Program-made: the position numbers and the translations under genes
The notes under the pieces: generated by a model
The model's database searches: none
Told to the model about the DNA's origin: nothing
What the model saw: only the letters and a program-made list of their open reading frames with translations
DNA from: Acholoe squamosa
Taxonomy: Eukaryota > Annelida > Polychaeta > Phyllodocida > Polynoidae
Assembly: GCA_949317995.1 (NCBI GenBank)
Contig: OX439044.1
Location: 27,848,733-27,912,732 of the forward strand
Length of the DNA stretch: 64,000 nt
Reading direction: 5' to 3'
Part shown: in pieces, positions 1-17,300 of the stretch
Numbering within the stretch: the first letter of the stretch is position 1
How the letters are laid out: each line of letters starts with the position of its first letter

Positions 1-89
1 CTCAAAGTCCTGAGATACATCATGCATAGTTGGGAGTTCCGGAGAGGTGACAGACCTTGGATGAACTTGTATTGGCGCTATGCTATATG

Positions 90-143
<54 letters not shown>

Positions 144-798
144 TTATTTAGTATACTGCTGTTAAACTGCTCACTCGGACTCAAGTTTTGTGAACACCCA
201 TATCTTATTATAAACCTATACGCCCTCTATTTAACATGACACCGGTACCCTGATCATACATCAAGTCTTGTATTGTTCATCGATTATAAAACAAAACGAT
301 AGGTTTAACAAATTGTTTTTATAGTACTCACCTTCCAAACAAACGTCTGAGCATATTTACACCTCTTCTGAGGAAATCCATGATGTTCTACCGATAGAAT
401 GAGACTTTCCTGTTCCGGAATTTTGAGAGATAACGTCGTTTTTTGTTTAGTCGAAGGTCAAACTAAACTACCGCATAGAGTTAGCTTAAAACCCTGTAGA
501 CGGCGCTCAAATCGTAGAGATGTAGTAGTTACCACATTAACCGCTAGATGTCCTCACTGCGCTATACTATCCCTGTTCCCGCCACAGTGGAGGGTTCTAG
601 CTCCTGACCTGTCCGAATAACCAGGGCATCATTGCCTAATACCTGATGTCCTCTCTGACCCCTTTGACCTTGGTAGATAACTAGACCTGATTAGAATGCT
701 TCCTTATGACACTGACCTCATTTGGGGATCAGAAGGCGCCAGGAAACAGGGCGGGGACCTACACGCTCAAGACTCTAGGCTCTCTAACTTTAGCCAGA
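1..798. other. left flank of the compact gene cluster, no convincing gene
   Basis: Apart from a GA microsatellite at about 92-134, this stretch shows no convincing gene. An open frame of 73 codons at 399-620 has no recognisable domain and no supporting context. The 80 bases before position 799 are locally GC-richer and may hold the promoter and 5' leader of the gene that follows. The window starts here, so the true left boundary of the virus-like cluster, including any terminal inverted repeat, cannot be seen. Confidence 0.5.
92..134. repeat. (GA)n microsatellite
   Basis: An almost pure GA dinucleotide tract of about 43 bases with one late interruption. A mirror-image CT tract lies at 8801-8850 in the same gene cluster. 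Confidence 0.95.
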
Positions 799-1281
799 AT
801 GCCGGCATTAAAATTCACAGCATATAACGATGTGCTCGTGTGGGATGCAAATGAGGAGGGCGATAAGTTCATGCAGGTTATTTATCATGTGTCACCAACA
901 CTGAATCTGCGCCTGAATTATAATGATGTTAACTCTGAGGAGTGTGAGGCTGAGTTCTGTATAATGCCCAGCCCCGATGATGACACGGAGGAGTATACCA
1001 TAGAAATAACTTTCGAGGAGTGGCGCGACATGGTTCAAAAGATTGAACTTATTAACGATCTAGCAACGGAACCCTGGCCTGTTTTCACTAAATGTGTGAC
1101 GAAGGGGTTCATTTTCCAGAAGACCCCAGGTAAAGACAATTTCACCGTCTTTTCTGCACTAGGATCTTATGACTCGTTCACAATGAACAGTGTGGAATTG
1201 ATTCGTCTGTTCTCAATGCTGGAGCATGCAAATGTCCAGAGCGTGGAATATTATAAATCACTCCTGCCGGGACATTTTTAA
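799..1281 (+). CDS. hypothetical protein of the virus-like cluster, possibly a tandem PC4-like domain protein
   Basis: An intact frame of 160 residues from ATG 799; an in-frame ATG at 706 would add 31 residues. I prefer 799 because the added segment is low-information and a splice-acceptor-like TTTAG lies just upstream. No family is firmly recognised. Twice a block of beta-strand-like sequence is followed by an amphipathic helix: EITFEEWRDMVQKIELIND in the middle and SVELIRLFSMLEHANV near the end. The first resembles the strand-turn-helix that closes the PC4/SUB1 ssDNA-binding domain, which also has a tryptophan at the helix start. A clearer PC4-like gene lies in the same cluster at 7208-8522. 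The protein is acidic and has no signal peptide or membrane segment. It is transcribed toward the polymerase gene (convergent). The coding call is fairly safe; the PC4 link is a guess. Confidence 0.6.
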   Translation: MPALKFTAYNDVLVWDANEEGDKFMQVIYHVSPTLNLRLNYNDVNSEECEAEFCIMPSPDDDTEEYTIEITFEEWRDMVQKIELINDLATEPWPVFTKCVTKGFIFQKTPGKDNFTVFSALGSYDSFTMNSVELIRLFSMLEHANVQSVEYYKSLLPGHF

Positions 1282-1741
1282 AGACTTATTGGATTAACTG
1301 ATAATGCTGTTACGTAATACCATGGACCTTTCCTACCGTGTATCACCAAAGACTCTGTCCTAACGACAGACTAAAGACTGCGCAATGCATGCCATTCAAA
1401 TGATACTAGAATGACTGCTTTTTTAGAGACCTGTATACTCTAGATTTAAATACTCCAGACTTGAATATTCCAGAATTGATACTACAGACTTGCTACTTGT
1501 CATGTATGTAGCATGTTTATATCACCCTACCGGGTATGATTATTGACTGCTTCATTTATTTTGATACTACCAAGCATGTGAAATTGTTGAGATTATCTAT
1601 ATATTCTGATAAAAACAAACACATCAGTGTGACATCAGTGTGAAATTTATTTTGTTTTATTGACACTAAATCAATGCACAGATTTGCTATAGGAGTAGCT
1701 TATAGAAGTTTGGGACAGAGTTTGTGACTTACTGGCACACA
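1282..1741. terminator. convergent intergenic gap with minus-strand polyadenylation signals
   Basis: This gap lies between two convergent genes. On the minus strand, AATAAA occurs at 1656-1661 and 1646-1651, about 80-95 bases beyond the polymerase stop at 1742, the expected place for its poly(A) signal. No clear AATAAA follows the plus-strand gene ending at 1281. The rest is AT-rich with nothing recognisable. Confidence 0.5.
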
Positions 1742-4618
1742 TCAGTATCCAAAAGGTATAGTCTCACCATCGATTAAAACATAACGCTTTGCAAAGACAC
1801 ATTGAAAACATTTAAGCTGTTCTATAGTGCGTATAACAGCAGAAGCTTTATCACGAGTAATAAAACTTCTGTTCTTTACCATCATTTTGAGAGGCTTGTA
1901 CACCTCCTGACCAGCTCTAGCTCTCAGTTCAGTAAGTAGTAAGTCTTTCATGCTGGTAAAGTTTATGTTTTCTGATACACTCTGCGTCAGGTTTATACCT
2001 TTTATTTTACATATGACATCTTGCTTGTTACCCTCAAAATCACATGTTTTGTAAGCATAACTTTTAGGCCCTGTGGAAACAAATTCATAAATAAAATGAC
2101 CTTCAGGTAGCTCATTAGTTAGGTCGCCTAAATAATCACCAGTAGGTGGTGTGTATTCGCTACAGTTATGTGGAGGGTTAATGTATGATCTGAATATTAT
2201 ACTATCAGTATCATAATACATGACACGTCTATCCAAACGTTTCAGGATAGAATACAGTTTCATTCGAGCATGAGCTGTAGTGTATGCTGCTATGACAACG
2301 TTTATTTTACTATTAGGTTGTACAAATTCCCTCTTTGATTTGTATTCCACGAATATAACATTTTCATTGACCAGTTGAATGTTGCATATTTCTTTTCTTT
2401 TATCAGTTATAAGTTTAAAATATTCAGCAGGTTCTGTAATGTAGACTGATTTCGTTTGATTTTGCTTCTGACCAAACTTACCCCAAAAACAATTCAGCAT
2501 TAGCTTAGCAACCGCTCTCAACCCAGGGTTATATTCTATGTTATCAGGGTCTAAAAGTATTCCCTCCCTCTCGTAATAGTGGTTAATGTAGGTTTGCCGG
2601 TCTTCAGGTGTTTTAACCCAGCTAGGCCAGCCACTTTTCTCTTGCTTTATTTTCAGAAAAGCATTGATGTACTCAGTGAAAAGCCCTCCAGTTTTTGTCT
2701 TTTTATCATATACAGAAACGTTGTCATAGTGCCATGCCTCATATACTTTAACTATTTTATACCCAGCTCTTACAGCTTCTTTCAGTTCCATGGATACCCA
2801 TGTACCGGTGATCATACGTTTACTATCAGAGTGATTACATGAGTAAGATTGCCCGTTAAAAAAACCATAAAATGCAGAGAAATAGTCATCTTTATCACTG
2901 GTGCTATTAAATATATTATCGGCTGATACAACACACGATTTACATAAGGTGAAATATAACCTATCTTTATACCTCATCGGTAGTACAGGGTGATACAATT
3001 TCCTTGGTGGTAAGACAGAACATTTTATCAGCCCTTCAATGTTTTCTATGTCAACATTCTCACTCCACTGTTCAGCAGGTATTACTCTATGCTCACCGCA
3101 CGGGTATTTACAGTATTTGTTTACATAAGGATACAAACTAGTGAAGTCCATGTACTCTATTTTCTCATTCCTACCGCATTTATGATATGTTTTAGTTGTA
3201 TCTACTCTACCGCCGTAAAAAGCATCTCTTGGCTGTAAGGGTTCGACAATTGAAACATCATTCATTACAGAGTTGTATTTTACAGTCTTTCGTAGCTCAT
3301 CAAAATCACAACTCCAGATGGTCTCAATTGAGTACCCTAAATCCCTAATTTCTTCATCAAGTCTCATTGTATTCTGGTACAGGACGCCCATACTTTTACT
3401 CAAAAAAGTATTATACACTTGAGATGGGTAACATTTATCGTGACCATGAATAAAACAACTATGGAATTGGTAGACAGTGCGTGAACCTGAATGATACCCG
3501 TCTACTTTTCTACCACCTATTCTAAATTCACCTTTTTTAGACCTAGCATGTCTTAATTGAATACCTTTTGTTCTTTCTATATATATTAACCATAGCATAC
3601 TATGTACTGAATGATTATCATAAGGTTTAAAATGAGCTACTACAGGGATAGTGTTTTCTTTAATGAACATAGTTCTGTACACAAGATTGCAGGCAGAAGC
3701 TATAGTTAGACATTTCTCAAAGGGATCGATTTTGTGTTTGCCCGAGATTTCCATAAAAATATTTCTAAATTCCAAGCAACCACGACGGAGGATATGTACA
3801 TCACTTTTACAATAATCTATTAACTCCTTTTTAAAATTGAAATCACTTAAAAGGTTTGAATCATACCATTTAACAAATTCTTTATGTACACTAGGTTTCA
3901 TGCTCCACGGCATATAGAAATAAGTTGGAGGTAGAACTTGATCATGATGATTTTGATTAGATTTTTTATTGAATAAATGCGGAAAAAATCCTTTACATAA
4001 TTCAGGAATGTTAAATGTCTTAGGTATCTTAGAGAGAGCCATTGGGAGAAAATTCAGGGAGTCTAAAAAACGGATATTGTATGGAGGGACTTTGAGACTC
4101 ATTACCTTACCACCATTGTAAATAATACCTGGTTTCAGTATTTTAGAATAAATGTAGGTTAAAATGAAATAAGAGTCATACCCATGGAAATTATGACATA
4201 TCATTTTACTGTTTTTGTGTTCTTTCACTAAAGCCCATTCACAGAACCTCTCTACGCACCCCTCACCATAAAAAACATGTTGATTTATACCACACGTGTC
4301 ACAACTAGAAGCAGCGTCAAATTTTCTCTGAGCATGCCCTGATTTAATACAGTCATGACATGTGCGCTCTGCTATACATAGATTGGGTACATGCTTGCCT
4401 GTATCTTGAGTACATTCTATATCAAAAAATATATATCGCTGGACTGATAAGTCTTTAGTTTCCGACTCAGAAATAGACTTAACCTTTTGAATATAACAAA
4501 TATGCTCATTCAAGGTATTATAATCAACATGACAGATACCACATTTTTTCATGAAGCATACATGGCGTTTAGATGCACCCTTATTAATCAAAAGCTTATT
4601 TTTTCTTCTTAAGAACAT
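1742..4618 (-). CDS. protein-primed family-B DNA polymerase, exonuclease and polymerase part (Maverick/adintovirus type)
   Basis: An intact, intronless frame of 958 residues. A Cys/His cluster lies at about 21-41. The 3'-5' exonuclease has Exo I at 66-68 (FFDIECT), Exo II at about 143-151 (NFHGYDSYF) and Exo III at 269-274 (YCKSDV). A stretch at about 380-400 with HSCFIHGHDKCYP resembles the endonuclease-like Cys/His insert common in animal polymerases of this type. Polymerase motif A is at 491-497 (DFTSLYP), motif B at about 706-717 (LMLNCFWGKFGQ), motif C at 801-809 (YYDTDSIIF), and the late K-x-Y at about 852-857. The long spacer between A and B fits the TPR insert of protein-primed enzymes. 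All catalytic aspartates are present, so the enzyme may be active. Related proteins usually carry the domain found here in the neighbouring frame 4620-5993 on the same chain. Here the start ATG lies one base after that frame's stop. Confidence 0.93.
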   Translation of the reverse strand: MFLRRKNKLLINKGASKRHVCFMKKCGICHVDYNTLNEHICYIQKVKSISESETKDLSVQRYIFFDIECTQDTGKHVPNLCIAERTCHDCIKSGHAQRKFDAASSCDTCGINQHVFYGEGCVERFCEWALVKEHKNSKMICHNFHGYDSYFILTYIYSKILKPGIIYNGGKVMSLKVPPYNIRFLDSLNFLPMALSKIPKTFNIPELCKGFFPHLFNKKSNQNHHDQVLPPTYFYMPWSMKPSVHKEFVKWYDSNLLSDFNFKKELIDYCKSDVHILRRGCLEFRNIFMEISGKHKIDPFEKCLTIASACNLVYRTMFIKENTIPVVAHFKPYDNHSVHSMLWLIYIERTKGIQLRHARSKKGEFRIGGRKVDGYHSGSRTVYQFHSCFIHGHDKCYPSQVYNTFLSKSMGVLYQNTMRLDEEIRDLGYSIETIWSCDFDELRKTVKYNSVMNDVSIVEPLQPRDAFYGGRVDTTKTYHKCGRNEKIEYMDFTSLYPYVNKYCKYPCGEHRVIPAEQWSENVDIENIEGLIKCSVLPPRKLYHPVLPMRYKDRLYFTLCKSCVVSADNIFNSTSDKDDYFSAFYGFFNGQSYSCNHSDSKRMITGTWVSMELKEAVRAGYKIVKVYEAWHYDNVSVYDKKTKTGGLFTEYINAFLKIKQEKSGWPSWVKTPEDRQTYINHYYEREGILLDPDNIEYNPGLRAVAKLMLNCFWGKFGQKQNQTKSVYITEPAEYFKLITDKRKEICNIQLVNENVIFVEYKSKREFVQPNSKINVVIAAYTTAHARMKLYSILKRLDRRVMYYDTDSIIFRSYINPPHNCSEYTPPTGDYLGDLTNELPEGHFIYEFVSTGPKSYAYKTCDFEGNKQDVICKIKGINLTQSVSENINFTSMKDLLLTELRARAGQEVYKPLKMMVKNRSFITRDKASAVIRTIEQLKCFQCVFAKRYVLIDGETIPFGY

Positions 4619-4619
4619 A

Positions 4620-5993
4620 TTACAGGTTCTGGCACACAGATTTTCTCATCTTTTTTTTTTTACTAGTACCAGAACCACTACCACGATATGCAGGGTATTT
4701 TTTAGAGTGAAAATTGAAACAGTCCATACCCTTGAAACTACGGTTGCATTTCACACAGTAAAACCATTCGGCATCGTTCTCAGGTTTATGTTCATGTTTA
4801 CACAATTTACATATGTCTTTACATGCATGCTGGTGGTGATTATTAGTACGTGCATAACATATAGTACAGAAATGACACCTACCGAAAAAGGAAGGGAGAC
4901 TTGTAAGAACATCAAAATGACCATCTGAGTGATATAGGCTTATTATCCGGGGTGTTTTAACACGATTATCATAGATTATAGAATTTAAGTGATCTTTAGA
5001 AACTATCATGATGCGGTATCCTTTCAGGGCTTTAGACAATTTGTCAAACATAGGCAGTGTTATACGAGTGTTGTAGGGTATCTTAGAGAATTTATATAAT
5101 TTTTTGACCATGCGTAACTGCAGCAATTTATTTTCACAGACTTTCCGTACTGCGCTGTTCAGACGGTTACCACTGCTGTCTGCTAGAACTTTACCCACAA
5201 CCAAGGCTCGAATGGCACAGCAATTATCTCTATTCTTGATATATATTACACACCTTTTAATTTTGAGAAGATGAGTGATTGGTTCCCGCCCTGATCCTGA
5301 AGGAACTTTGACATGAGTCACTGTTATCGTGCAACCCTTGTTCAGGTTAAAAACACTGAAACTCTGTAAAACTCTGTCTATCTCGGTTAGAATATCTCTA
5401 GCACTGATGCTACTAACCGTATTGAAATGTATGAGTATAGGATAGTCTATATCTCTACTGTCTATGGTCATTCTAATTAGATCGTCAGAACCAAATTTCA
5501 AAGTTAGTTCTTCAACCAGTTTCTCAAAAACTTCAAAAAGCCTTGCCAAAACATCCTTCATAGATTTAAATTTTTCATTCATATTTAATCTAAAAGTGTA
5601 TGTTGTATGTCTAACCTGGAATTTTCTTGAAAATTGCTCATTCACCTGACGCAATGAATATAACCCCCCTGATCCAAAACCCTGATCAGTAATGTCTGGG
5701 GAATTTTGATCAGTTGGTATAGGTTGAGAACCGGCATGGCTGCTATTCTGGTTATCATTATGATTATCATTATCGTTACCAATAGCATTAAGACCATGAC
5801 GCCTGTCTAAATGCAGATTCAGGTTGCCACGTTTAGGGAATTCTTTCCCACAGACATGACAGATATGTTTGGTAACTGTGTGAGCTGCAGGGGAGGCACC
5901 ATTTCCTTTTTTCTCAGGAGGGTGTGTTTTAATATGCTTATTGAGATAAAAAATCTTTTTATATGACTTACCACAAACAGGACAGTCAAACAT
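4620..5993 (-). CDS. zinc-finger N-terminal half of the PolB protein, as a separate reading frame
   Basis: An intact frame of 457 residues. It starts with two C2H2 fingers (CPVCGKSYKK at about 4-13; CHVCGKEFPKRG at about 45-56), followed by a polar Asn/Asp linker. A middle domain of about 240 residues resembles the N-terminal region of animal Maverick/adintovirus-like polymerases. A Cys/His-rich C-terminal region follows (CTICYARTNNHH; CVKCNRSFKGMDC). The frame ends just after an A11 tract that encodes four lysines. Its stop and the ATG of the polymerase frame are separated by one base (TAATATG), in different frames. The pair looks like one ancestral protein now split. Options are stop-start reinitiation, programmed frameshifting, separate transcripts, or a damaging indel. 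Both halves have kept long open frames, which argues against old decay. Confidence 0.8.
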   Translation of the reverse strand: MFDCPVCGKSYKKIFYLNKHIKTHPPEKKGNGASPAAHTVTKHICHVCGKEFPKRGNLNLHLDRRHGLNAIGNDNDNHNDNQNSSHAGSQPIPTDQNSPDITDQGFGSGGLYSLRQVNEQFSRKFQVRHTTYTFRLNMNEKFKSMKDVLARLFEVFEKLVEELTLKFGSDDLIRMTIDSRDIDYPILIHFNTVSSISARDILTEIDRVLQSFSVFNLNKGCTITVTHVKVPSGSGREPITHLLKIKRCVIYIKNRDNCCAIRALVVGKVLADSSGNRLNSAVRKVCENKLLQLRMVKKLYKFSKIPYNTRITLPMFDKLSKALKGYRIMIVSKDHLNSIIYDNRVKTPRIISLYHSDGHFDVLTSLPSFFGRCHFCTICYARTNNHHQHACKDICKLCKHEHKPENDAEWFYCVKCNRSFKGMDCFNFHSKKYPAYRGSGSGTSKKKKMRKSVCQNL

Positions 5994-6024
5994 GATTTCA
6001 GTCTTGTGAGAATCAGTCTATTAT

Positions 6025-6906
6025 TCAGTTTATCATGAGATGACGCAGTGTTTTAAATCCAGGATCTACAATATCGTCTATTCTATCACAAATATTCTCT
6101 AGATCGGGGTCTGTTATATACAAGTCTCTGATAAATGCACTAGCATTAACCAACCAGAAAATATCCGATCTCAGATTATAAACATTATTTAAGAATGTAT
6201 GCCTGGATGTTACTGAAGGACTGATATATTTTCTAATCTCTATTATCAATAAGTCAAAGAAAAGCTCTTTGAACTTTATATCAATATCTCTACCAATATG
6301 CGCTAAGTTAAAAAGAATAGGAATTTTGAAGTTCTCAAAGTGTTCAGAGTTACCAGAAAATTCCAGAAAAAAAGAAACAATTTCTCCAGAATCTACAACC
6401 TTTACACCACAGCTTGCCAGACCCCGACCTATTTTGAAACCTTCTCGCGATTGCATTACATAGTGAAGGTCTCTTTTTTCTGAATAAACCTTAAAGATAG
6501 TGAGAGTTACAATTAACTTTTTAAATATCAGAAGTAATTCATAAGATCTGCTATAACATTTGTTTTCTGAGAGAATTGAGCCTAAACGCCTGTATAAATT
6601 CGAGCCAATGTTGTTGTGGATATTATCTAAACTATCACACACATCAAAAAGCCTGTGATAGAGGGTTTTGAGACAATTCAATCTGTCAATAAAAACTTCT
6701 ATATCAGACCAGTCATGAAGTGTTATAAAACGTCTCTTTATAAAGTATTTCCAGGTCTCTTTTAAAGAAAGAACACCCCGAGCTCTTTTTGAGGCTATAG
6801 CAAATCTGTGTAAGCTTTTTCTGTCATGTTCTAAGAATGTAATGACTAACCAAAAAATCTCCTGAGGGAGATCCGAGAGTGAAAAGCTAGAGCTAGAACT
6901 ATCCAT
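6025..6906 (-). CDS. F-box protein of the virus-like cluster
   Basis: An intact frame of 293 residues. After a serine-rich start, residues about 12-58 match an F-box: LPQEIFWLVITFL, a downstream SKRARG, then a WKYFIKRR-type end. F-boxes bind Skp1 and make the protein the substrate receptor of an SCF ubiquitin ligase. The remaining 235 residues form no repeat (no WD40, LRR or kelch) that I recognise; they are helical-looking and presumably bind the target. The gene lies 32 bases upstream of the polymerase N-terminal frame, on the same strand, as if part of one transcription block. Viral F-box proteins commonly redirect host ubiquitination; that role is inferred from the setting only. There is no signal peptide or membrane segment. 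Confidence 0.75.
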   Translation of the reverse strand: MDSSSSSFSLSDLPQEIFWLVITFLEHDRKSLHRFAIASKRARGVLSLKETWKYFIKRRFITLHDWSDIEVFIDRLNCLKTLYHRLFDVCDSLDNIHNNIGSNLYRRLGSILSENKCYSRSYELLLIFKKLIVTLTIFKVYSEKRDLHYVMQSREGFKIGRGLASCGVKVVDSGEIVSFFLEFSGNSEHFENFKIPILFNLAHIGRDIDIKFKELFFDLLIIEIRKYISPSVTSRHTFLNNVYNLRSDIFWLVNASAFIRDLYITDPDLENICDRIDDIVDPGFKTLRHLMIN

Positions 6907-7207
6907 AACATGTGAAATGTTAGAATGTATATGATAACTGACAACAAACCACCTCAGGATATACCCTTTGATTGTAAGAAGTCTCCAAATTTTATAATTA
7001 CTACAAATGTAAATTATAAGACCTTACATAGATTAAAAGAATAATAATTCTTAATGAATACACTGTGAAAGTGTCTATATGACGACCCTACATAAACTAC
7101 ACAGTCAGATTATCTATACTCTTTCTATACGCTCTGACTGCCTCTACATTGAAAACTGAAATACACCCAAAAAAGTTGAGGATTTCTTGCACGTAATACA
7201 CGTCTCA
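6907..7207. other. intergenic gap between F-box and PC4-like genes
   Basis: About 300 AT-rich bases that must hold the 3' end of the PC4-like gene and any promoter of the F-box gene. I see no clear TATA box or AATAAA on the minus strand here. Confidence 0.4.
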
Positions 7208-8522
7208 TTACTCACTGTCCTCCAACTCTTCAATCCTGCTGTCAACGGCCTCTATGTTGTCGCAAAGGGTCCGCCACTGATTCACAGTGAGGACAGCCCC
7301 ACCCTTTTTAATTGGCTGCCACAGCACCGAGTCTGGGTCCTCAGGGTCCCCGGCCGTCTCTATCCTTAACACCGTGTAAATCGAGACCAATGGCTCTCCA
7401 GTCAGATCATCATCCACCAGAATGCACTTCCTGTAAAAGTCAGGAGTATAATGTTTTATTTATTTAGAATAAATCTCATATATCATATAATGAGAGTTAT
7501 GATAATACTTATAGCATTTGCAATGTAATATAACTTTGTTATTAAACTATGTAATAATTCAGATTCCATGTCACTAGTGAGTAGATAGAGTGGAATTGAA
7601 ATTTTAATGAGATTATATGAAATTATTTTGTGATAGTTATACAGATTCATGTCAGTAGTAGATTAACATAACAAACTTAAAATTATAAATATCAAGAATA
7701 ACATAAATCAGTTAATCACAAATCATAACATACCTGAATGGTTTAGGAATTCCTCGGCGGATAAACTCAGGCTCAAGCCAGCACAGGACATCAGACTCTC
7801 TTTTTGGACCTCTCACGATGGACTCAGTTTGCTGTGGGGAGGCTGAGAATGACCCTCTGCTAACTCTAGGCTCGACAACCCCCCTCTTTGATGCTTTAGA
7901 CCCGCTCGAGGCAGTCTTAGGTGAAGCTGGAGGGTGTAAAGGCGATGATGATGGGGAAGGTCGTGGTGTTGAAGCGCGTGGCGGCGCACCACCCTTAACC
8001 CTACTGGTCTTAGTTGGGGTTTTAAATGGTGTGGCCTGAGATGCCCCCTCGGAGTCTTCCACAGTATCTGCGTCACCCTCCTCATCAGCATCGGCATACG
8101 TTAAGGCTTTGACAACCTTTTTGGGCGGAGGTGTAAAAACATCATCATCGCTGGGTGCGTCCTGGACCCAAACGTCCTCGTCTTCAGGCTGCTCAACAGG
8201 TAGTTTAGAATTTGAGGGTTCAGGAGGGGGGATGTTCTCGGCTTGAGGTGCTACATGCACTGCACGGCGCGTCTGCTTCCTTTTCAAAGCTGGCTGAGGA
8301 AGAAAAGAAAAAAAAGTCTTAATAAAAATCATAAATGATTATATAAACATTATCTATAATAATCAAATGTAATATGTCATAAACAGGAACGCTGTGAGAA
8401 CTTCATGTATAAACAGATGAATTATATTCCATGAAAAGATTTATGCATCCTTACATTACGTGTCCTTGCTATAATTCAATGAAAAGAGCAGAAGTTAATA
8501 GCGAATAACTCACCTTAGACAT
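7208..8522 (-). CDS. spliced PC4/SUB1-like single-stranded DNA-binding transcription cofactor
   Basis: Three exons on the minus strand: 8514-8522 (Met-Ser-Lys), 7734-8293 and 7208-7430, giving 264 codons with the stop. All four splice sites are strong: AAG|GTGAGT, a pyrimidine tract with TTCCTCAG, CAG|GTATGT and TTTTACAG. The phases fit (0, then 2). Residues about 4-185 are low-complexity, rich in Ser, Pro, acidic and basic residues. The last 80 residues resemble the PC4 ssDNA-binding domain: a short beta region (PFR continuing into CILVDDD), then GGAVLTVNQWRTLCDNIEAV, which matches the strand plus W-containing helix that ends PC4. PC4 binds melted DNA and helps RNA polymerase II transcription, replication and repair. 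Next to a DNA polymerase it could serve as a replication ssDNA-binding protein or late-transcription cofactor. Ordinary PC4 proteins are about 120-130 residues, so the N-terminal extension is unusually long. Confidence 0.72.
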
Positions 8523-8634
8523 TTTGAGGAGTGTTGTCTGATTAGGTTGAAAACTGGGTAAATTTCCACTGAAAGTAGCTCAGGTGAGTCTACAGCAAGG
8601 TTCAATATCAGTGTAGCGTTCCCCGCATGCCACA

Positions 8635-8731
8635 CCTTTTTTATACATCTCAGGTGGTCAGTGAGGGTGACCATGCGTCTACACCCCTAAGACCAATAAC
8701 GGTGCTGCTACGTCATAGTAAACCCCGCCCC
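8635..8731 (-). promoter_or_regulatory. compact Pol II promoter of the PC4-like gene
   Basis: On the minus strand a TATA box, TATAAAAAAGG, lies at 8635-8645, about 113 bases upstream of the ATG at 8522. Upstream of it are a CRE-like TGACGTA at 8709-8715 and a GC box GGGGCGGGG at 8723-8731. The spacing predicts transcription starting near 8605-8610 and a leader of about 85 bases. The (CT)n tract at 8801-8850 reads as GAGA repeats on this strand. This is the best-formed promoter in the window and resembles strong viral promoters in its compactness. Confidence 0.6.
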
Positions 8732-8800
8732 TCCTACAGCCAGGTACCGCTGAAGGACAACAGGCACCCTGTAGGACTGCTTTATCAACCCTCTGGGTGT

Positions 8801-8801
8801 C

Positions 8802-8850
<49 letters not shown>
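8801..8850. repeat. (CT)n microsatellite
   Basis: A 50-base CT tract with one A interruption near 8807, upstream of the promoter of the minus-strand gene block. Confidence 0.95.
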
Positions 8851-8851
<1 letters not shown>

Positions 8852-8853
<2 letters not shown>

Positions 8854-9652
8854 TACTATGCATGCCCCTTGGTGGTGATGAAAAAAGTTGCTTTTTATCA
8901 CCATGACCCAACCCTAAATGGCACCCTTAAATTACACCTTTACAACCTGGCGTCTGTGTGAGGGTGGTGTAGGATGAGCCTGGGGAATCAATTACAACCT
9001 CCCACAGCCATAAAAGATTACTAACGGCGTACAGTATCCTGTTTTAACGAGGGTAAACACATCTACAGACTCCTGTCCTGTGATACTGTGATGTGTAAAG
9101 TTAGATTACTGATCTTGACCCTCAGGTCATGACTGTAGACGTGCATGAGCACCCTGTTATCCTTTGGGGATATGGTGTATACCCTATCATGAATGGGGTA
9201 AAGCAATGTTTCATTTATGCAAAAAAAAAGGGTAAAGTCCCTATTCTTTAAAAGGTACTGTTGTATAGTAGTTGGGGTATAAAAGACTGTACAATACCCA
9301 GTTATGAAGTAGGGAGTGTAGGTTACAGGGTGAAACCTTTGAACACTTTGATGTACTGTGTGACTCACTTAACACGGCTTTAAAGCATATGGGGTAAAAC
9401 CACATGCATTACAATGATCATACGGGGTAGAAAGAAAATAAAAAGGGGTAAAACTGATGACTGTCGTGAACATTATGTATACAGCACATAGAAAAATACG
9501 TTATGTGTAGGGTTAAATCAAGTCTATGTCAGACTGTTTAATTACTGAGTGTTCTCATCTGATATCCGCTCTAAGTTAAAGTGACGCCAGTCACACAGAC
9601 AACAGTAGTTCTTAAGACACAGGCTGGGGAGATACAAGTACTTGGAAGCACC
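8852..9652 (+). promoter_or_regulatory. divergent control region with repeated GGGGTAAA words
   Basis: This is the only divergent gap in the cluster, between the minus-strand block and the plus-strand receptor gene. GGGTAAA or GGGGTAAA occurs in the same orientation at 9051, 9195, 9230, 9391 and 9445, with looser versions at 9274 (GGGGTATAAAA), 9424 (GGGGTAGAA) and 9511 (GGGTTAAA). A plus-strand TATA box, TATAAAAG, lies at 9278-9285 and would serve the gene starting at 9653 with a leader of about 340 bases. The words could be binding sites for a cluster-encoded regulator or replication protein. A 101-codon open frame on the minus strand at 9063-9368 overlaps the words and is not annotated as a gene. 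Confidence 0.45.
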
Positions 9653-11936
9653 ATGAATGTTATTAATTCATACATTTACATGATTTTATTCATGTACGGA
9701 ATGTCGATTACCGATGGTATGTACCATTGTGGACCAGCATTGCGATGCCTCTGTGAGCCAAACACTCGATCGATTCTATGCAGCGGTCAAGGAATAACAT
9801 CAGTTCCTGAGTTAGGCGTTGAATACAATTATTACAATAAACTGTTTTTACAGTATAATGACATAAGATATGTACGAATAACTAAGGTATACGACATCTT
9901 GGATGTACGAAATAACCCTATATCATGCAGAGAACATTTACCTAAATGGGTTCTACAAAATTCATGCTCACTGGAGATAAAAGGTTCTGAGGATATGGAC
10001 CACAACAAGGACCTCATTAAAGAGTATGTAACAGGATATGACGGTGTTGGAACAATTGAGAATGGTCTAAGTGAATCAATTGAAACTACAACGCAGGGAA
10101 TACATATGGAGACTACAGCACAGAACTCCGTAGAGAGTACAGCCCTGAACTCTGTCATACCCTTAGTGACTACGGGTGACGTGTATGCTCTAGTGAGCAG
10201 CACTCAGATCCCTAGTATTGATGACAGCTCTACTCCCACTATATCTAAATTACTCACTACGTATGATGTAATGAAGAATCCAGATTTAGTGAGTGTGTCA
10301 TGGGGTCATGGTAGCGTGTCAACACATTACGTCAGCACCCCATCTCCATGGCTGTCAGGTGAGGCTCGTGGTGAACTGAGTGAAAAAGTCTCGCAAAGTG
10401 ATATTATTATAACTCAGGCGAGCATAGAAACTATGACTGAAATTGAATCTACCTCTAGAGACGGGTCTAATGATTTAACTTCTACCACTCAAGGGTTGCG
10501 CCTAATATCTGATGAACCTTCTACCCCCTATCAACAGAATTTCATACCGTTAAAAGCACCTTATAACAATGATTCTAGCACCCCACACAATAACAATGGA
10601 ATTAAACTAAAGACCTATGGTAGTGATGAGTCAAAGAGAAGTGGTATGAAACTAGAGCTGTCTAAAACGCTGAATAAGGGCAATATTACTGTCGGTATTG
10701 GAATAGATGGAAACAAGACTCATGTCATCCTGAAAGGGGAAATTGAGCTGTATGTTCCTATTTTATCAGTGCTAGGAGTCATAGTCGTTATCATTACACT
10801 GATCACAATGGTCATAGTTTGGCTTAAGCGATCTAGGTCTGGTACCTGGAGAAACATTTTAATGTGTGGAAACAGTGTAAACAACACCGGCACCAACAAC
10901 ACCGCGTTAGAACTGGTTCCCCATATGAATCAGGACTGGATGTAAGTATCAATCTCTATTGTTGTTATATTTACTCATAATGGTGGTTATAGATATAATA
11001 AATCATTACTATGGATATCTGTGTGGAGTCTCAATGTAATAACTCCATTGATGTATTCACTCTATTATCTAATGAAATGAGTAATAAACGATGAAAATAG
11101 AATTAATATTTTTATTTCATGATATAAAAGTCCTCATACAATTTCAGGTCTCCAGCAGGTAGATCATGCAGGTCCCCTATGACAGCACAGGCCAGTGTTG
11201 AATATGTAAATGAGAATCATCAGAACAGGTGAATACCTGTAATAATAATATCATGCATACATATACTCATATATTCTCATATATTATATCAGATTCTTAA
11301 ATGTGTTGTAAGACTCAAAGTTTAAGATTGATTTCTCGCAAGACATACATGAATACCATACAGGGTTCTCTCACGCTCCTCATGCTTCATTTATTGTACT
11401 TAAGGTTGACTGACCCTACATCCAGAGACAAAAATGCTGACTGTGGGAACGAGGATACCCGACCCTACTCAGAACCCTCTCAAAGTGCCGCTACCGTGCC
11501 TCCCAGTACCTCTAACGACCAATCAGTCTCATGGAAACCTACTCAACCAGGTGCCTGGGTTGGGGGTACACAAGATGTTGAACAGTGTGTTGAACAGTGT
11601 GGTGCCAAAAGTTCAGTGCCCGGAAATTTGAAAGAATCGCCTAACTCCTCAACGCTGCACAGAACAACCTCTACCCCTATGGTCTTAAGCATGGGAGAAA
11701 ACAGGTTCACTACACCTACTGCTTCCCCTATCATTAAGTGTGAAGCAGGCGTCCTTAACAAATGGCTGTCATCGCCTGAACTGACATGTGATGTGCCAGT
11801 GGCTTCAGAAACCCCCAAACGCCCTGAGTGCATGAGATTGAGATCTGGCCGTGATATTGAATTAAAAGAGCGTGTAAAAAAAAAAAATCGAATGAAACTA
11901 AGTAGACACGACCCTATGATGTATCCTGTATATTGA
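9653..11936 (+). CDS. spliced LRR-mucin-transmembrane receptor with signalling-type tail
   Basis: Exon 1 is 9653-10941, exon 2 is 11148-11228, and exon 3 is probably 11426-11936, for 627 codons with the stop. ATG 9653 has a good context (ACCATGA). It begins a hydrophobic signal peptide of about 22 residues, followed by a Cys cap (CGPALRCLCEP), one or two leucine-rich repeat-like turns, and an LRR C-terminal cap (NPISCREHLPKWV then a Cys). A Ser/Thr-rich mucin-like stalk of about 230 residues leads to a transmembrane helix at about 364-389 (LSVLGVIVVIITL) with a following LKRSR stop-transfer. The exon 1 frame would stop right inside a perfect donor, GAT|GTAAGTAT. Exon 2 contains SVEYVNEN, a Grb2 SH2-type YxN motif. 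Exon 3 keeps frame through acceptor CTACATCCAG after a CTGAC branch point. A nearer acceptor at about 11290 would give a six-codon tail instead. The architecture resembles platelet GPIb-like or Toll-related receptors without a TIR domain; no specific family is assigned. Confidence 0.7.
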
Positions 11937-11967
11937 GTTACAGTATATCCGGTAATCCGGTGAAATC

Positions 11968-12019
<52 letters not shown>

Positions 12020-12285
12020 GTATTCAAGCGTGTTGCTGTTCTAGGACTATCTTTTATGTCGAATTAAGCTAATTAAGCTACACTCCATATAGTGTTTACA
12101 GGATGTATATCTAGATACATATAACTGAAATATATAGGTGCAAATATATCTATACTACACTTTAGTATATTACTACATGTACTCAGCATAATGTATCCAT
12201 ATCATATAATAATGATTATTCAGCTATGTCGATGTTTAGAACTTCTAATTCATCTCTTTCAATATCATGTGATCTACAAATGGGT
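11937..12285. other. intergenic gap with (AT)n tract
   Basis: An (AT)n microsatellite spans about 11969-12020, followed by AT-rich sequence with no recognisable gene. Two convergent genes end on either side. Confidence 0.6.
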
Positions 12286-12993
12286 CTATACACGTATTTT
12301 ACCAGTAGCATAAGCAGTCAGAGTTTTGTATAACAAACAATGAGAACTGGTAAAAATTTCACGACCTCTGAAAGGAGCAACAGTGCCCAAAACTCTGAAC
12401 TTAACACGACGGGATACAATGGCAGGTTGCTGCTGATCAAGCTTATCAAGAATAGCTCTGACTTTAGTCATTCCAGGCATATCATCGTAGTACTCAGTGA
12501 AAAACACCCCTGAACCTACTGTATTCTTCACCCTCTCGACTATGACACCGCTTATCATGTCTATACATGTATTCAGTAGAGTAAATCCTTCAGAGAAATT
12601 GTATTTAGCAAGAGCACGTATTGCATTCCGGCGAACAATACTGCTCCGTTCATGCCATACCAGTCCTGCTGATTCAAGTATTCGCTGCATCTCTCTGTGA
12701 TCATAAGAGTCCTTTCTAAAAAGCTGAGTCATTAGATTATGGGATGCCATATACTGATGTCGTGCCATTCTATTATATATGCTATACATTCTAGGCTCCA
12801 ACCACGATTCCATGTGGGTATGCAATAAGACAAGTTCCATTTGTGCTGCATAATAATTAATTGGTATCTTACCATATCCACAAAAAACAGTCCTGCATTT
12901 ATTTATGAACTCATCACGAGTGGTCTCATCAGTCTCATTAAATGAGAAATCATTAAAGGAATCTACTTCCTGAGGTGTTGTTTGACCGTACAT
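12286..12993 (-). CDS. hypothetical protein, intact member of a tandem paralog pair
   Basis: ATG 12993 gives 235 residues and matches the start of the paralog at 13956 (both begin MYG-x-TT). The open frame extends 43 codons further upstream, but that part has no counterpart in the paralog. An acceptor-like CTAACGTCTCAG just before the ATG hints at an intron in the 5' leader. Blocks shared with the paralog include FCGYGKIP, YYAAQMELVLLH, EYY-x-DMPGM and PFRGREI-x-TS. The sequence has mixed helical character with no signal peptide, membrane segment or zinc motif. I do not recognise the family. Conservation of whole blocks between two diverged copies shows it was maintained as protein. It is encoded on the same strand as the polymerase. 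Confidence 0.7.
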   Translation of the reverse strand: MYGQTTPQEVDSFNDFSFNETDETTRDEFINKCRTVFCGYGKIPINYYAAQMELVLLHTHMESWLEPRMYSIYNRMARHQYMASHNLMTQLFRKDSYDHREMQRILESAGLVWHERSSIVRRNAIRALAKYNFSEGFTLLNTCIDMISGVIVERVKNTVGSGVFFTEYYDDMPGMTKVRAILDKLDQQQPAIVSRRVKFRVLGTVAPFRGREIFTSSHCLLYKTLTAYATGKIRV

Positions 12994-13260
12994 AACTACT
13001 GAGACGTTAGATACTTTCCAAAAACAGTAATAGGATAATGAAAAGTATCCTGCAGTGCTGAAAACGTTAGATAATTCCAAAACAATATTAGGGTGATAAG
13101 AAAATGTCTCCGTGTATAACATTCACTGTATAGCGTCTGATAGCGATATAACTGTATCTGATTAGTAGCTCCGACTGGTGTGTAGGAGGTGAACTAGAGA
13201 ACACTGTAGAAATAGGCCATTAAACTCGTTAGATGGTATACACTGTTTCTGTCCTGTTAT

Positions 13261-13956
13261 TTAAAGGTAATTACCACTAGCATATCTGTGTATAGTCTTA
13301 TACACATTACATCTGGGACTTGTGAGAATTTCCCTCCCTCTGAAAGGGGTGACTGTCCCCACGATTCTCTGTCTAACTCGTTCGTACACTGTAGAGGGAA
13401 GCAGCCTACTGTATTCCTCCACTATAGCTTCAACCTGACCCATTCCAGGCATGTCGTGATAATACTCAGAATGGAAAATTGCCGGTCCAACAACTTTCTT
13501 AATCTTCTCCACTGTAACATAAACGACTAAGTCAATGCATGAGTTTTCTAGAGAAAACCCCTGTGAAAAATCATATTTCTTCACTACACGCTTAGCTTCA
13601 TTGAAACATATCTGAGGTAGTACATCATGTGGCATTCCACTGCTAGTGAGGATGTTCAACATCGAGCGCACATCATACCATCCGTAGTGAATCAACTGAG
13701 GAATCAGTTCATGCGAATTGAGAAATTGATCTCGGGCTATCTCATGATACAGTCGGAACATTTTTCTGTGGTGAAATTCCGGTATAAAAGAATGAAGTAG
13801 AACCAATTCCATCTGAGCTGCATAATAATGCACCGGTATTTTACCATACCCGCAGAAAATCTTTCTTAATCCGTCTTTATATTCTTAATATGTTGTTTCT
13901 TCTTTCTCCTTGAACTCAAAGTTCAATACATCTTCACGTGTAGTACGTCCATACAT
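13261..13956 (-). pseudogene. second paralog of the unknown family, interrupted by an in-frame stop
   Basis: The frame starts at ATG 13956 (MYGRTT) and runs 232 codons to a stop at 13261, the same length as the neighbour at 12286-12993. A TAA at 13885-13887 interrupts it after 23 codons. The rest of the frame is open for 190 codons and keeps the shared blocks (FCGYGKIP, YYAAQMELVLLH, YYHDMPGM, PFRGREI). There is no ATG soon after the stop in the conserved part, so a shorter product is unlikely unless a non-ATG start is used. The single lesion in an otherwise well-kept frame indicates recent inactivation, a sequencing error, or an unusual expression step. An acceptor-like TTTTACACAG lies 15-20 bases before the ATG. 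Confidence 0.65.
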
Positions 13957-14065
13957 GTTGATGTATGAAGCTGTGTAAAATCAAGTGTATATGTACGTAT
14001 AGGAAAGTTTCACTGAGCTATCAGTAATGAATTAGCGTATGTAGGAATGAAAGGTTTATGACAAA

Positions 14066-14302
14066 CCTCCCCTCAGTAGTACTACTACTGCCCGCTGGTG
14101 AGTAAAAAATCAACTACAGTTTGGCATGTAGGAAAAATGTATGAAATACCCACTAGGGGAAGAGGGGTGCTAACATTCCACCACCCCTCAGTAGTACTAC
14201 TACTGCCCTCTGGTGAGTAAAAAATCAACTACAGTCTGGCATATAGGAAAAATGTATGAAATACCCACTAGATGGCAGAGGGGTACTAATGCTCCACTAC
14301 CC
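14066..14302. repeat. 115-bp tandem duplication with CTCF-like motifs
   Basis: Two copies at about 14066-14180 and 14181-14302 share CCTCAGTAGTACTACTACTG and most of the following 100 bases. Each copy has two outward-different motifs close to the bilaterian CTCF consensus CCASYAGRKGGCRS. On the plus strand are CCACTAGATGGCAG at 14265-14278 (full match) and CCACTAGGGGAAGA at 14150-14163 (weaker). On the minus strand are TCACCAGAGGGCAG at 14203-14216 and TCACCAGCGGGCAG at 14088-14101. The duplication lies just outside the virus-like cluster, near its probable right edge. Confidence 0.75.
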
Positions 14303-14305
14303 CAA

Positions 14306-17300
14306 GCGTGTCCACCATGGCTGTAAGGTCAAATGAGGACAAATTTCACGCCAGAGGTAGCAATTATCTTTCTTAAGCGTTGAAACTCCATAGGGGCCCA
14401 AACCACCAAGTTCCATTTTTGCTACTTATATAAGTAACAAGGCGGCGTGTGCATTTAACTTGACCATGGCACAGTGTCTAGAATCCACAAGAAACATGTC
14501 CAGTTCACTGGGAAACATAAAAACCCTGCACACACATCCTACATGCATCTATATGTACCATAAGGATCTGGTGTTAGATGCATGACTATGTGTTAATCTA
14601 TATAGAAACTTAGAGGGATGAGCTTTCCTGTTGAAACTCACTGTATGCAGTCAGTAGAGCTCTAGAAGTTCTGGATGGCTATGCTAAGATCTTTCACCAT
14701 ACTTCACACATACAATATGTCTAAACATAACTAAGTTTAGTCTAGACCTATAGTTCAAAAGTATCCCCCTTCCCTCTATATTTATAAGATTAGACCCACT
14801 CCTGATCTGTTATGTAAAGGGCACTTTTCTTTAATATAATGAAATATTTATCATTCTAGGATCACCTACCAGGATGGATCCAAAGCATAGGTAACAGACT
14901 TCAACCATCCGCAGTTCTTAGCAGGAAGATGTGCCATAAAGATGGGTATATGCATATTGTTAACTGATAACCTCATTAACCATGGCTATAATTATCTCTA
15001 TCACTCTCTCCAAATTGAACACATGTGTGTCGCACCTTTTTGGGCCAACACACACACCCATCACACTTCTGCCAACACTCCCTAGAAAATGGTGTGAAAA
15101 TGAACCCTTCGCCATGACTATCCAATAATTTGAATCCCGATGGCTTCCCCATGATCACTCCTCATCCATCTATTCATGGTTACAATGAAAGACATCACAG
15201 ACAGTCAGTTTTGCCAGGGTGATGTGACCTTGTTACATTTCCTTCCTTTCCCACAGGAAATGAGTGCAAGTCAATCCGCTATCTCAAAGCTGATACTGAC
15301 CTAAATTCACCTCCAATGCAAGAAGACCAAAATGGCCTCTATGTCATTTTGCGTAAGGAAAAAAAACAGTACCTTTGTATGCATACCACTTATTTCACTG
15401 ATTAGTGTCATAAAAAAAATGAACATGGCATCACCTGCTCCAATCCTTCTAGCACACTCTGATCATTAAATTACCTACAGATAGTACATTGTTTTTACAT
15501 AGTGATGTGTACAGGACCCAGTACCCATTTAAAAAAAAAATACACGGAATTATCCTAGAGACACCAAACCTGACTTTATTATTACAAACTTCATAGATGT
15601 CACCTATGGAAAAAATAAGCAAATTTGAACTATGATAAACCACTTTTTTTTTTCTAAAAAGAAACAAAAAAACTTAAAATCAATGACCCAACTGGTAACA
15701 ACAGTTAATGTGGTTTAAATGAAGCTTAGAAAAATTAAATAGAGTTGCTATGGAAACTGGACGCGTTAATATATACATTTGATAAGGCAGAAAAAAAATA
15801 CTGTCAAATATTTATTTTGATTTGACTTGTTAGCTTAGCAACAAAAACATTTGTTTTGTTAATCTCGAGGGTTGTTCCACATTTGATATAAGAAGGCATA
15901 TAGCTTTATGGACGGTAACATATGTATCTTCCATTCATCATTAGCAATTGTTTGCATTTTCCAAAACGTATCTACAGCTTTATATACAGTATTTAAAGAC
16001 AGCATGGTACATTCTCAGAGGGCACACTTGAGTGGAATAAATGTTGAGACCAGGTATGAAGTTTGTCTATAAAAGGTTGATGTAAGGTAGAGATATGGCT
16101 AAATTTCAATGTTAACAATACATAATCATATCACCCATGACTCAACATCTACACATTACTGATTTAACACAGGTTGATGGTGATATTGATTCATCGTTGT
16201 TTCAATGTTAATAGTTGTTACGTTATTGAATGTTGGCATATCAACATTGAGTTAATACTTAAAATGATAGTACCGTAATCTCCTGCGTATAAGGCGCGTC
16301 TTATACGCAGGAGTTAGTGCTAATTGCATCCACAAGGGGGACTCCAAGACCTTTATTTTGACATGTCCCATGCCCCCTTGGCCATAATAGGATATATGGG
16401 GGCCCAGGGGAATCCATGGGGCACACGTTACACATAGGTATTTGAATTTTGAAAATTCATTCAGAAGAACCAAAATTATGAATTTTTCATTTTTTTGACA
16501 ATTTTCCAAAACTCTAGGTGCGCCTTATACGCGGGCTGCACCTTATACGAGGGAGATTACGGTAGTGAATCAAACAACACTGAATCAGTGTTGACAGATT
16601 GATTGAAATTGTCAACATTAATCAACCGGCTTCAACATTAATTCAAAATTCTGTGCTCACTGGATTGTAGCTTCATGTTCATTTTCCACAATGATGCAAT
16701 AATCAAGCACTTGTGATGCTGGAACTGTATTAATGCAGCCCTTCCCTTCCATTGAAAGAATGGTCGCTGAAGTTCCTATACAATTTGTGCTTGGAAGTGT
16801 ATCAAAACCATGGCGCAGGGCATGATACCTTAAAGTGGCCTCAACAAGTTACTGGTACTTGCAAATCTGCATCTTTCTGACTAAACATACATTGAAACAC
16901 ATTACTGCCATTAAACAGTTAATATGAATGCCCTTGTAGCTTGAACATCCATATACTTTAACTCTGACACTAACACAATTAGACCAAATGAATAATTACA
17001 ATGTACACCTATATATACATAATATTCAACAGTAGTTTCAGGAGACCTCCATACCATCTTGACAATTGAAACCAGAAATGTAAGCTTTTCACAAAATATC
17101 CATGCGTCCGACATATGAAATAAATGTGAGAATTAATGGCAGTGAGATTGGTAATAATTCAATTGCCTTTATACATTTTCTACCATGAAAATTGTCAAGC
17201 TCGGCAATCTGTAAAGTGAACTCCCCTCCCTAAATGGTATCATGTAATCATAAAAGTAGACTTTCAGCCTCGAAAAAAAATTCAGTCAACCCTCTTTATA

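What the first reader, a model, noticed from the sequence alone, without database searches (positions are those of the whole stretch)
1..14000. Compact virus-like element with an unusual gene set in animal DNA
Seen: seven or eight genes in 13 kb with introns of about 310 bases or less, next to 50 kb of sparse host DNA with long introns. The set is a protein-primed PolB in two frames, F-box, spliced PC4-like, possible second PC4-like, LRR-mucin receptor and two tandem unknown paralogs. Known: such PolBs mark Maverick/Polinton, adintovirus and related elements, which normally also carry integrase, packaging ATPase, protease and capsid genes; none is visible here. Inference: either a truncated member with captured host-type genes, or a distinct lineage that pairs PolB with PC4, F-box and a receptor.
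Basis: partly seen in the sequence, partly recalled or inferred. Interest (0 to 1): 0.9.

Follow-up and report, generated by a model that had tools for sequence, protein, structure and literature searches.

The report
Maverick provirus with unusual gene cassette
A 23-kilobase Maverick-type virus-like element, one of about thirty near-identical copies in this animal's genome, carries a DNA polymerase gene and a block of extra genes kept by selection, some of which are predicted to act on the host cell or on DNA copying.

Summary
The window cuts a mobile element in two. Window 1-14426 is the right-hand 63% of a 23,049-bp Maverick/Polinton; the rest lies left of position 1. It has 158-bp terminal inverted repeats and a TATATA target duplication; 7 of 8 other copies examined show both ends with their own 6-bp duplications. 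The PolB frameshift and integrase deletion are defects of this copy: 22 of 28 family copies have an open PolB. F-box-like, spliced PC4-like, LRR-mucin and tandem-paralog genes belong to the element: they recur in order in three families under purifying selection; 84 of 113 F-box-like places have an MCP-like gene beside them. PC4 has support for the spliced gene, not for the 196-aa ORF; F-box rests on a motif. No Ulp1-type protease was found, inconclusively. A new variant of a known kind.

The parts
1..14426 (.). Right-hand part (element positions 8624-23049) of a 23,049-bp Maverick/Polinton element; genome C10:27840110-27863158
   Evidence: TIR pair and TSD; other copies share both ends
691..1281 (+). 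196-aa ORF (conserved from Met at 799), unknown function; not shown to be PC4
   Evidence: no protein at E<=0.001 in 5.8 billion; dN/dS 0.14-0.30
1742..4645 (-). PolB, exonuclease and palm part
   Evidence: PF03175 E 1.2e-40; 47 scored places in own genome; relatives up to 61-62% identical
4620..6017 (-). PolB N-terminal part: C2H2 fingers, putative terminal-protein region, vOTU-like region with invariant Cys and His; in another frame in this copy
   Evidence: zf-C2H2 E 1.1e-6; C267 and H367 invariant in 6 of 6 sequences
6025..7023 (-). F-box-like protein
   Evidence: 130 matches in own genome; conserved; no Pfam match; motif test against a recalled consensus
7208..7430 (-). PC4-like gene, exon 3 (the PC4-like domain)
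7734..8293 (-). PC4-like gene, exon 2 (low-complexity)
8514..8522 (-). PC4-like gene, putative exon 1 (three codons)
   Evidence: start codon and GTGAGT donor read
9575..10945 (+). LRR-mucin single-pass membrane protein
11301..11936 (+). Low-complexity ORF, similar ORFs at the same place in the B and C copies read
12286..12993 (-). Tandem helical paralog 1
13261..13884 (-). Tandem paralog 2; its frame is cut by an in-frame stop here and in the other family-A copies listed
14065..14271 (.). Subterminal direct repeat, two 92-bp units
14269..14426 (-). Right terminal inverted repeat, 158 bp, ending GCTACT
14427..14432 (.). Target site duplication TATATA (other copy in L027, 6628-6633)

Best explanation
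The finding is the right-hand 14.4 kb of a 23-kb Maverick/Polinton element, bounded by terminal inverted repeats and a 6-bp target duplication and likely inserted by its family's integrase, one of about 30 near-identical copies whose lineage carries a conserved cassette of extra genes. How it would work (inferred): the PolB, whose N-terminal half has a putative terminal-protein and vOTU-like region, copies the linear genome from its ends by protein-primed strand displacement; the spliced PC4-like protein is proposed to bind the displaced single strands or the transcription machinery; the ATPase and capsid-like proteins would package the DNA; the two LRR-mucin membrane proteins would serve as surface or attachment proteins; the F-box-like protein would direct host ubiquitin ligase to host targets; the helical paralogs would act on the host in an unknown way. 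The copy in the window is a decayed member: PolB frameshifted, integrase missing about 370 bp.
For: TIR 158 bp with AGTAGC...GCTACT ends and TSD TATATA; 7 of 8 further copies show both ends, each with its own 6-bp TSD. Integrase rve E 9.4e-10 plus chromodomain E 2.1e-6 (L011); PolB E 1.2e-40; ATPase Pox_A32 E 0.0076, below the curated cut-off. PolB places: 28 at 99-100%, 13 at 85%, 1 at 84%, 5 at 82%, 47 scored of 1658 candidates. Accessory genes collinear in families A, B and C; dN/dS 0.05-0.30 for them, 0.03-0.04 for the MCP-like protein. F-box-like gene with MCP, PolB and paralog in order: A 25 of 31, B 13 of 13, C 5 of 10. Eight A copies differ from each other by 0.06-0.5%, the window copy by about 1% from each. 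PC4-like domain against the host's own PC4: 3, 0 and 6 of 5000 shuffles reach the score.
Against: The MCP-like protein got no Pfam or PDB-sequence match, its model is unusable (pLDDT 28.7), so virion formation is inferred from place, conservation and recall. No Ulp1/adenain protease seen. F-box and PC4 have no Pfam match. The roles of all accessory genes are untested; a 148-aa ORF is only weakly constrained (dN/dS 0.31-0.41) and paralog 2 is cut by a stop in the family-A copies listed. Of 59 F-box-like places outside A-C, 17 have neither a scored MCP nor a paralog beside them.
Confidence: 0.9

Rival explanations
1. Only PolB is mobile and the neighbours are single-copy host genes.
For: PC4 and LRR proteins are host-type.
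Against: TIRs and TSDs enclose all of them; F-box-like gene in 130 matches, paralogs in 139; collinear in three families.
Confidence: 0.01
2. A non-viral transposon: the element moves by integrase and PolB, and the 462-aa and 187-aa proteins are not capsid proteins.
For: No database or structure support for the capsid-like proteins (only chance-level phage matches); no protease found.
Against: The 462-aa protein has the lowest dN/dS of the eleven genes or pieces measured (0.03-0.04) and lies in one block with integrase and ATPase; packaging-type ATPase (weak).
Confidence: 0.12
3. The PC4-like protein is a transcription cofactor or chromatin protein of the element, not its single-strand DNA-binding protein.
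For: Its domain resembles the host's own PC4, which by recall acts in transcription as well as binding single strands; long low-complexity exon before it.
Against: By recall, strand-displacement replication needs a single-strand binder, and no other candidate was recognised in the element.
Confidence: 0.4
4. The window copy is a chimera in which host genes were captured after insertion.
For: The copy is decayed (63 private differences in 7866 columns).
Against: The accessory genes occur in the B and C copies read, at dS of about 0.5-1.4, once 2.5.
Confidence: 0.01

Closest known systems
Vertebrate Mavericks (PMC8097293, passages read)
   Same: TIRs, 6-bp TSDs, AGT...ACT type end motif, 12.7-24.6 kb, PolB, integrase, ATPase; [quoted passage not shown]
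   Different: Intact ones have eight (or seven) intronless conserved ORFs including a protease; here one gene is spliced, no protease was found, and the accessory genes form a conserved cassette of F-box-like, PC4-like, LRR-mucin and helical paralog genes
Adintoviruses (PMC11071296, passages and section 16 read)
   Same: rve integrase with C-terminal chromodomain; PolB with an N-terminal region holding an invariant Cys and His; animal host
   Different: Hexon relationship could not be tested; the main text of that paper has 0 occurrences of PC4 and of F-box
Polintons with vOTU-containing pPolB (PMC11071308, passages read)
   Same: terminal-protein region, then vOTU region, before the palm domain
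   Different: the Ulp1-family protease listed as a polinton gene was not found here
Mavericks with candidate envelope glycoproteins (Widen et al. 2023, cited in a passage of PMC11071296; itself not read)
   Same: membrane surface protein genes inside a Maverick-type genome
   Different: here LRR-mucin type, two distant paralogs; no fusogen recognised

Membership tests
Maverick/Polinton | terminal inverted repeats with AG...CT type ends | tested here: met
   158 bp, AGTAGC...GCTACT; same left end in 8 of 8 and right end in 7 of 8 further copies
Maverick/Polinton | 6-bp target site duplication | tested here: met
   window copy and 7 of 8 others, all different, one of them GGGGGG; one right end not found in the piece fetched
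Maverick/Polinton | protein-primed type PolB | tested here: met
   PF03175 E 1.2e-40; PHROG 1907 E 1.4e-47; priming itself not tested
Maverick/Polinton | retroviral-type integrase (rve) | tested here: met
   L011 900-2072, rve E 9.4e-10; 372 bp of it missing in the window copy, present in 8 of 9 other A copies compared, the ninth (L015) not alignable there
Maverick/Polinton | A32/FtsK-type packaging ATPase | tested here: inconclusive
   Pox_A32 E 0.0076, 16.2 bits against a cut-off of 22.8, on the C-terminal piece only
Maverick/Polinton | double jelly-roll major capsid protein | tested here: inconclusive
   462-aa candidate; no Pfam or PDB match, model unusable
Maverick/Polinton | Ulp1/adenain-type cysteine protease | tested here: inconclusive
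   no C48 or C5 match among the 20 ORFs of the window copy and L011 given to Pfam at E<=1, no ORF over 101 aa in the eight gaps of the window copy; a genome search for PF02902 did not complete. The MCP-like protein also lacks a Pfam match, so a diverged protease is not excluded
Adintovirus | integrase with C-terminal chromodomain | tested here: met
   Chromo E 2.1e-6 at residues 349-388 of 390 (L011)
Adintovirus | PolB with N-terminal OTU-like domain | tested here: inconclusive
   Cys267 and His367 invariant in 6 of 6 sequences; fold not tested
Adintovirus | hexon recognisable by BLASTp against adintovirus hexons | not testable with these tools
   no reference hexon on hand; the three protein database searches went to PolB, the paralogs and the 196-aa ORF
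PC4 domain (spliced gene) | sequence similarity to PC4 | tested here: inconclusive
   3, 0 and 6 of 5000 shuffles reach the score against the host's PC4, but no Pfam PC4 match at E<=10 in 3 of 3 members
F-box protein | F-box motif | tested here: inconclusive

The most novel reading that the evidence does not exclude
A living lineage of animal Maverick viruses that has built its own host-interaction and replication kit, a spliced PC4-type single-strand binder taken from a host, an F-box ubiquitin-ligase adaptor, paired LRR-mucin surface proteins and a new helical protein family, and that does without the usual Ulp1-type capsid protease.
Probability: 0.25. Interest if true: 0.75.

Novelty: new variant of a known kind. 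Interest (0 to 1): 0.5.

Why it matters
Mavericks are thought to be viruses, but how they replicate and meet the host is little known. This lineage offers a natural series within one genome (three families measured, more indicated by the 84-87% MCP-like group) in which accessory genes are kept in order and under selection, so their roles can be asked directly: does a Maverick carry its own single-strand binder, its own ubiquitin-ligase adaptor and its own surface protein? The very similar copies suggest recent activity in an animal.
Full report
WHERE IT ENDS. BLAST of DNA left of the window against the window gave one inverted match, L027 6628-6791 to window 14432-14269, 97% identical. Reading both ends shows TATATA|AGTAGC... 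and ...GCTACT|TATATA: a 158-bp terminal inverted repeat and a 6-bp target duplication. The element is C10:27840110-27863158, 23,049 bp; the window holds its last 14,426 bp. For eight other copies I fetched 301-bp pieces at the expected ends: the left end was found in 8 of 8, the right end in 7 of 8, and in those 7 the flanking 6 bp match, each different (one is GGGGGG, low-complexity). These are the duplication size and the type of end motif reported for vertebrate Mavericks (PMC8097293, passages).

WHAT LIES LEFT OF POSITION 1. In order: a second LRR/mucin membrane protein (L027 7042-7818; sialomucin MGC-24 E 8.8e-5, below cut-off; 27% identical to the window's LRR protein), an ATPase (Pox_A32 E 0.0076), a short basic protein, a 131-aa ORF, an integrase, a 187-aa protein, two low-complexity ORFs and a 462-aa protein. 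The integrase is whole in L011 (rve E 9.4e-10, chromodomain E 2.1e-6); the window copy lacks 372 bp that 8 of 9 other A copies compared have. I call the 462-aa and 187-aa proteins major-capsid-like and penton-like from place and from recall of Maverick proteins; no call confirms it.

COPIES. The PolB piece matched 47 scored places (1658 first-look candidates, so a lower bound): 28 at 99-100% (family A), 13 at 85% and 1 at 84% (B), 5 at 82% (C). In family A, 22 of 28 have an open frame of 1430 aa without stops; the window copy (967 aa) is one of the six that do not. The MCP-like protein matched 92 scored places of 2491 candidates: 29 A, 14 B, 8 C and 41 at 84-87%. Over a 7.9-kb piece, eight A copies differ from each other by 0.06-0.5% and the window copy by 0.93-1.12% from each (9 of the 10 A copies fetched; L015, which matches only in part, left out). 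The family looks young; I did not convert this to years.

THE ACCESSORY GENES BELONG TO THE ELEMENT. Right-hand pieces of one B copy (L044) and one C copy (L045) carry the F-box-like gene, the PC4-like gene with matching splice signals, the LRR membrane protein, a low-complexity ORF and both paralogs in the same order; in L044 the F-box-like frame and paralog 1 are each broken by a stop. Between families dN/dS is 0.13-0.18 (F-box-like), 0.05-0.17 (PC4-like exon 3), 0.27-0.29 (LRR protein), 0.20 (paralog 1, one pair), 0.08-0.15 (paralog 2), 0.14-0.30 (196-aa ORF), against 0.09-0.11 (integrase) and 0.03-0.04 (MCP-like); a 148-aa ORF has 0.31-0.41 (simple Nei-Gojobori, some pairs near saturation). 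The F-box-like gene has 130 matches (133 of 151 candidates scored). I copied 113 of these by hand, dropping 17 further fragments of split copies, and 88 of 139 paralog matches, dropping 51 that by place are mostly the second paralog. With MCP, PolB and paralog in order: A 25 of 31, B 13 of 13, C 5 of 10; of the 59 others, among which no PolB had been scored, 34 have MCP, 27 a paralog, 17 neither; 84 of 113 have an MCP-like gene in all. Nine of 92 MCP places and nine of 88 paralog places had no F-box-like gene within 25 kb. Paralog 2 has a stop in the family-A copies listed and open frames in the B and C copies read, so an intact one was apparently not needed for the A burst.

WHAT THE ACCESSORY PROTEINS ARE. 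PC4: exon 3 resembles the host's own PC4, found with PF02229 at C5:83459657 and read from L058 and L062: scores 46, 49 and 45 against a shuffle mean of 23; 3, 0 and 6 of 5000 shuffles reach them; in the two alignments printed the aligned part is the last 23 residues, with a shared QW. Pfam does not call it, and no PF02229 match was listed at this copy's place in the genome search. 196-aa ORF: no support as PC4, no protein at E<=0.001 in 5.8 billion. F-box: motif only. LRR proteins: cysteine-rich N-terminal block, Ser/Thr-rich middle (23-29%), a C-terminal membrane span. Paralogs: all-helical model, no known fold matched, one distant relative. PolB N-terminal half: zinc fingers and a region with invariant Cys and His, as described for the vOTU domain of pPolBs (PMC11071308, passages).

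MECHANISM. Shown: ends, duplications, copies, gene order, selection. Inferred: integrase-made insertion (from the 6-bp duplications and the rve gene), protein-primed strand-displacement replication, PC4-like protein as single-strand binder, packaging into particles, surface role of the LRR proteins, ubiquitin hijack by the F-box-like protein.

PLACE AMONG KNOWN THINGS. It meets four tested Maverick features (ends, duplication, PolB, integrase); the ATPase, capsid and protease tests were inconclusive. By the adintovirus definition in PMC11071296 (section 16 read) the integrase with chromodomain fits; the hexon test was not possible. Most vertebrate Mavericks are described as having accessory regions with diverse proteins, so extra genes as such are expected; a conserved cassette of these genes, one of them spliced, is what differs.

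Noticed in passing
L027 1-3511 (C10:27833477-27836987): Part of a different Polinton-type element (PolB piece, ATPase, rve+chromo integrase) about 3.1 kb left of this element's left end.
   Followed up: partly
own genome, e.g. L059-L061: PC4 (PF02229) has 148 matches at E<=10, two of them exons of the host gene; 20 reach the cut-off (host gene counted), many in repeated ORFs. PC4 domains may ride in other repeats of this genome.
   Followed up: partly
window 13885 region and sibling copies: The family-A copies of paralog 2 listed share an in-frame stop, so the founder of the burst probably already had it.
   Followed up: partly
L015: The copy at C1:3.33 Mb matches the others only over the right half of the fetched left piece; a rearranged or truncated copy.
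   Followed up: no
window 14065-14271 and L009 5978-6156: Short tandem repeats of about 90 bp, two units each, about 95% alike, one pair beside the right inverted repeat.
   Followed up: no
window 19919-21396: ORFs on the minus strand outside the element, one with a membrane-like segment; host-type by eye.
   Followed up: no
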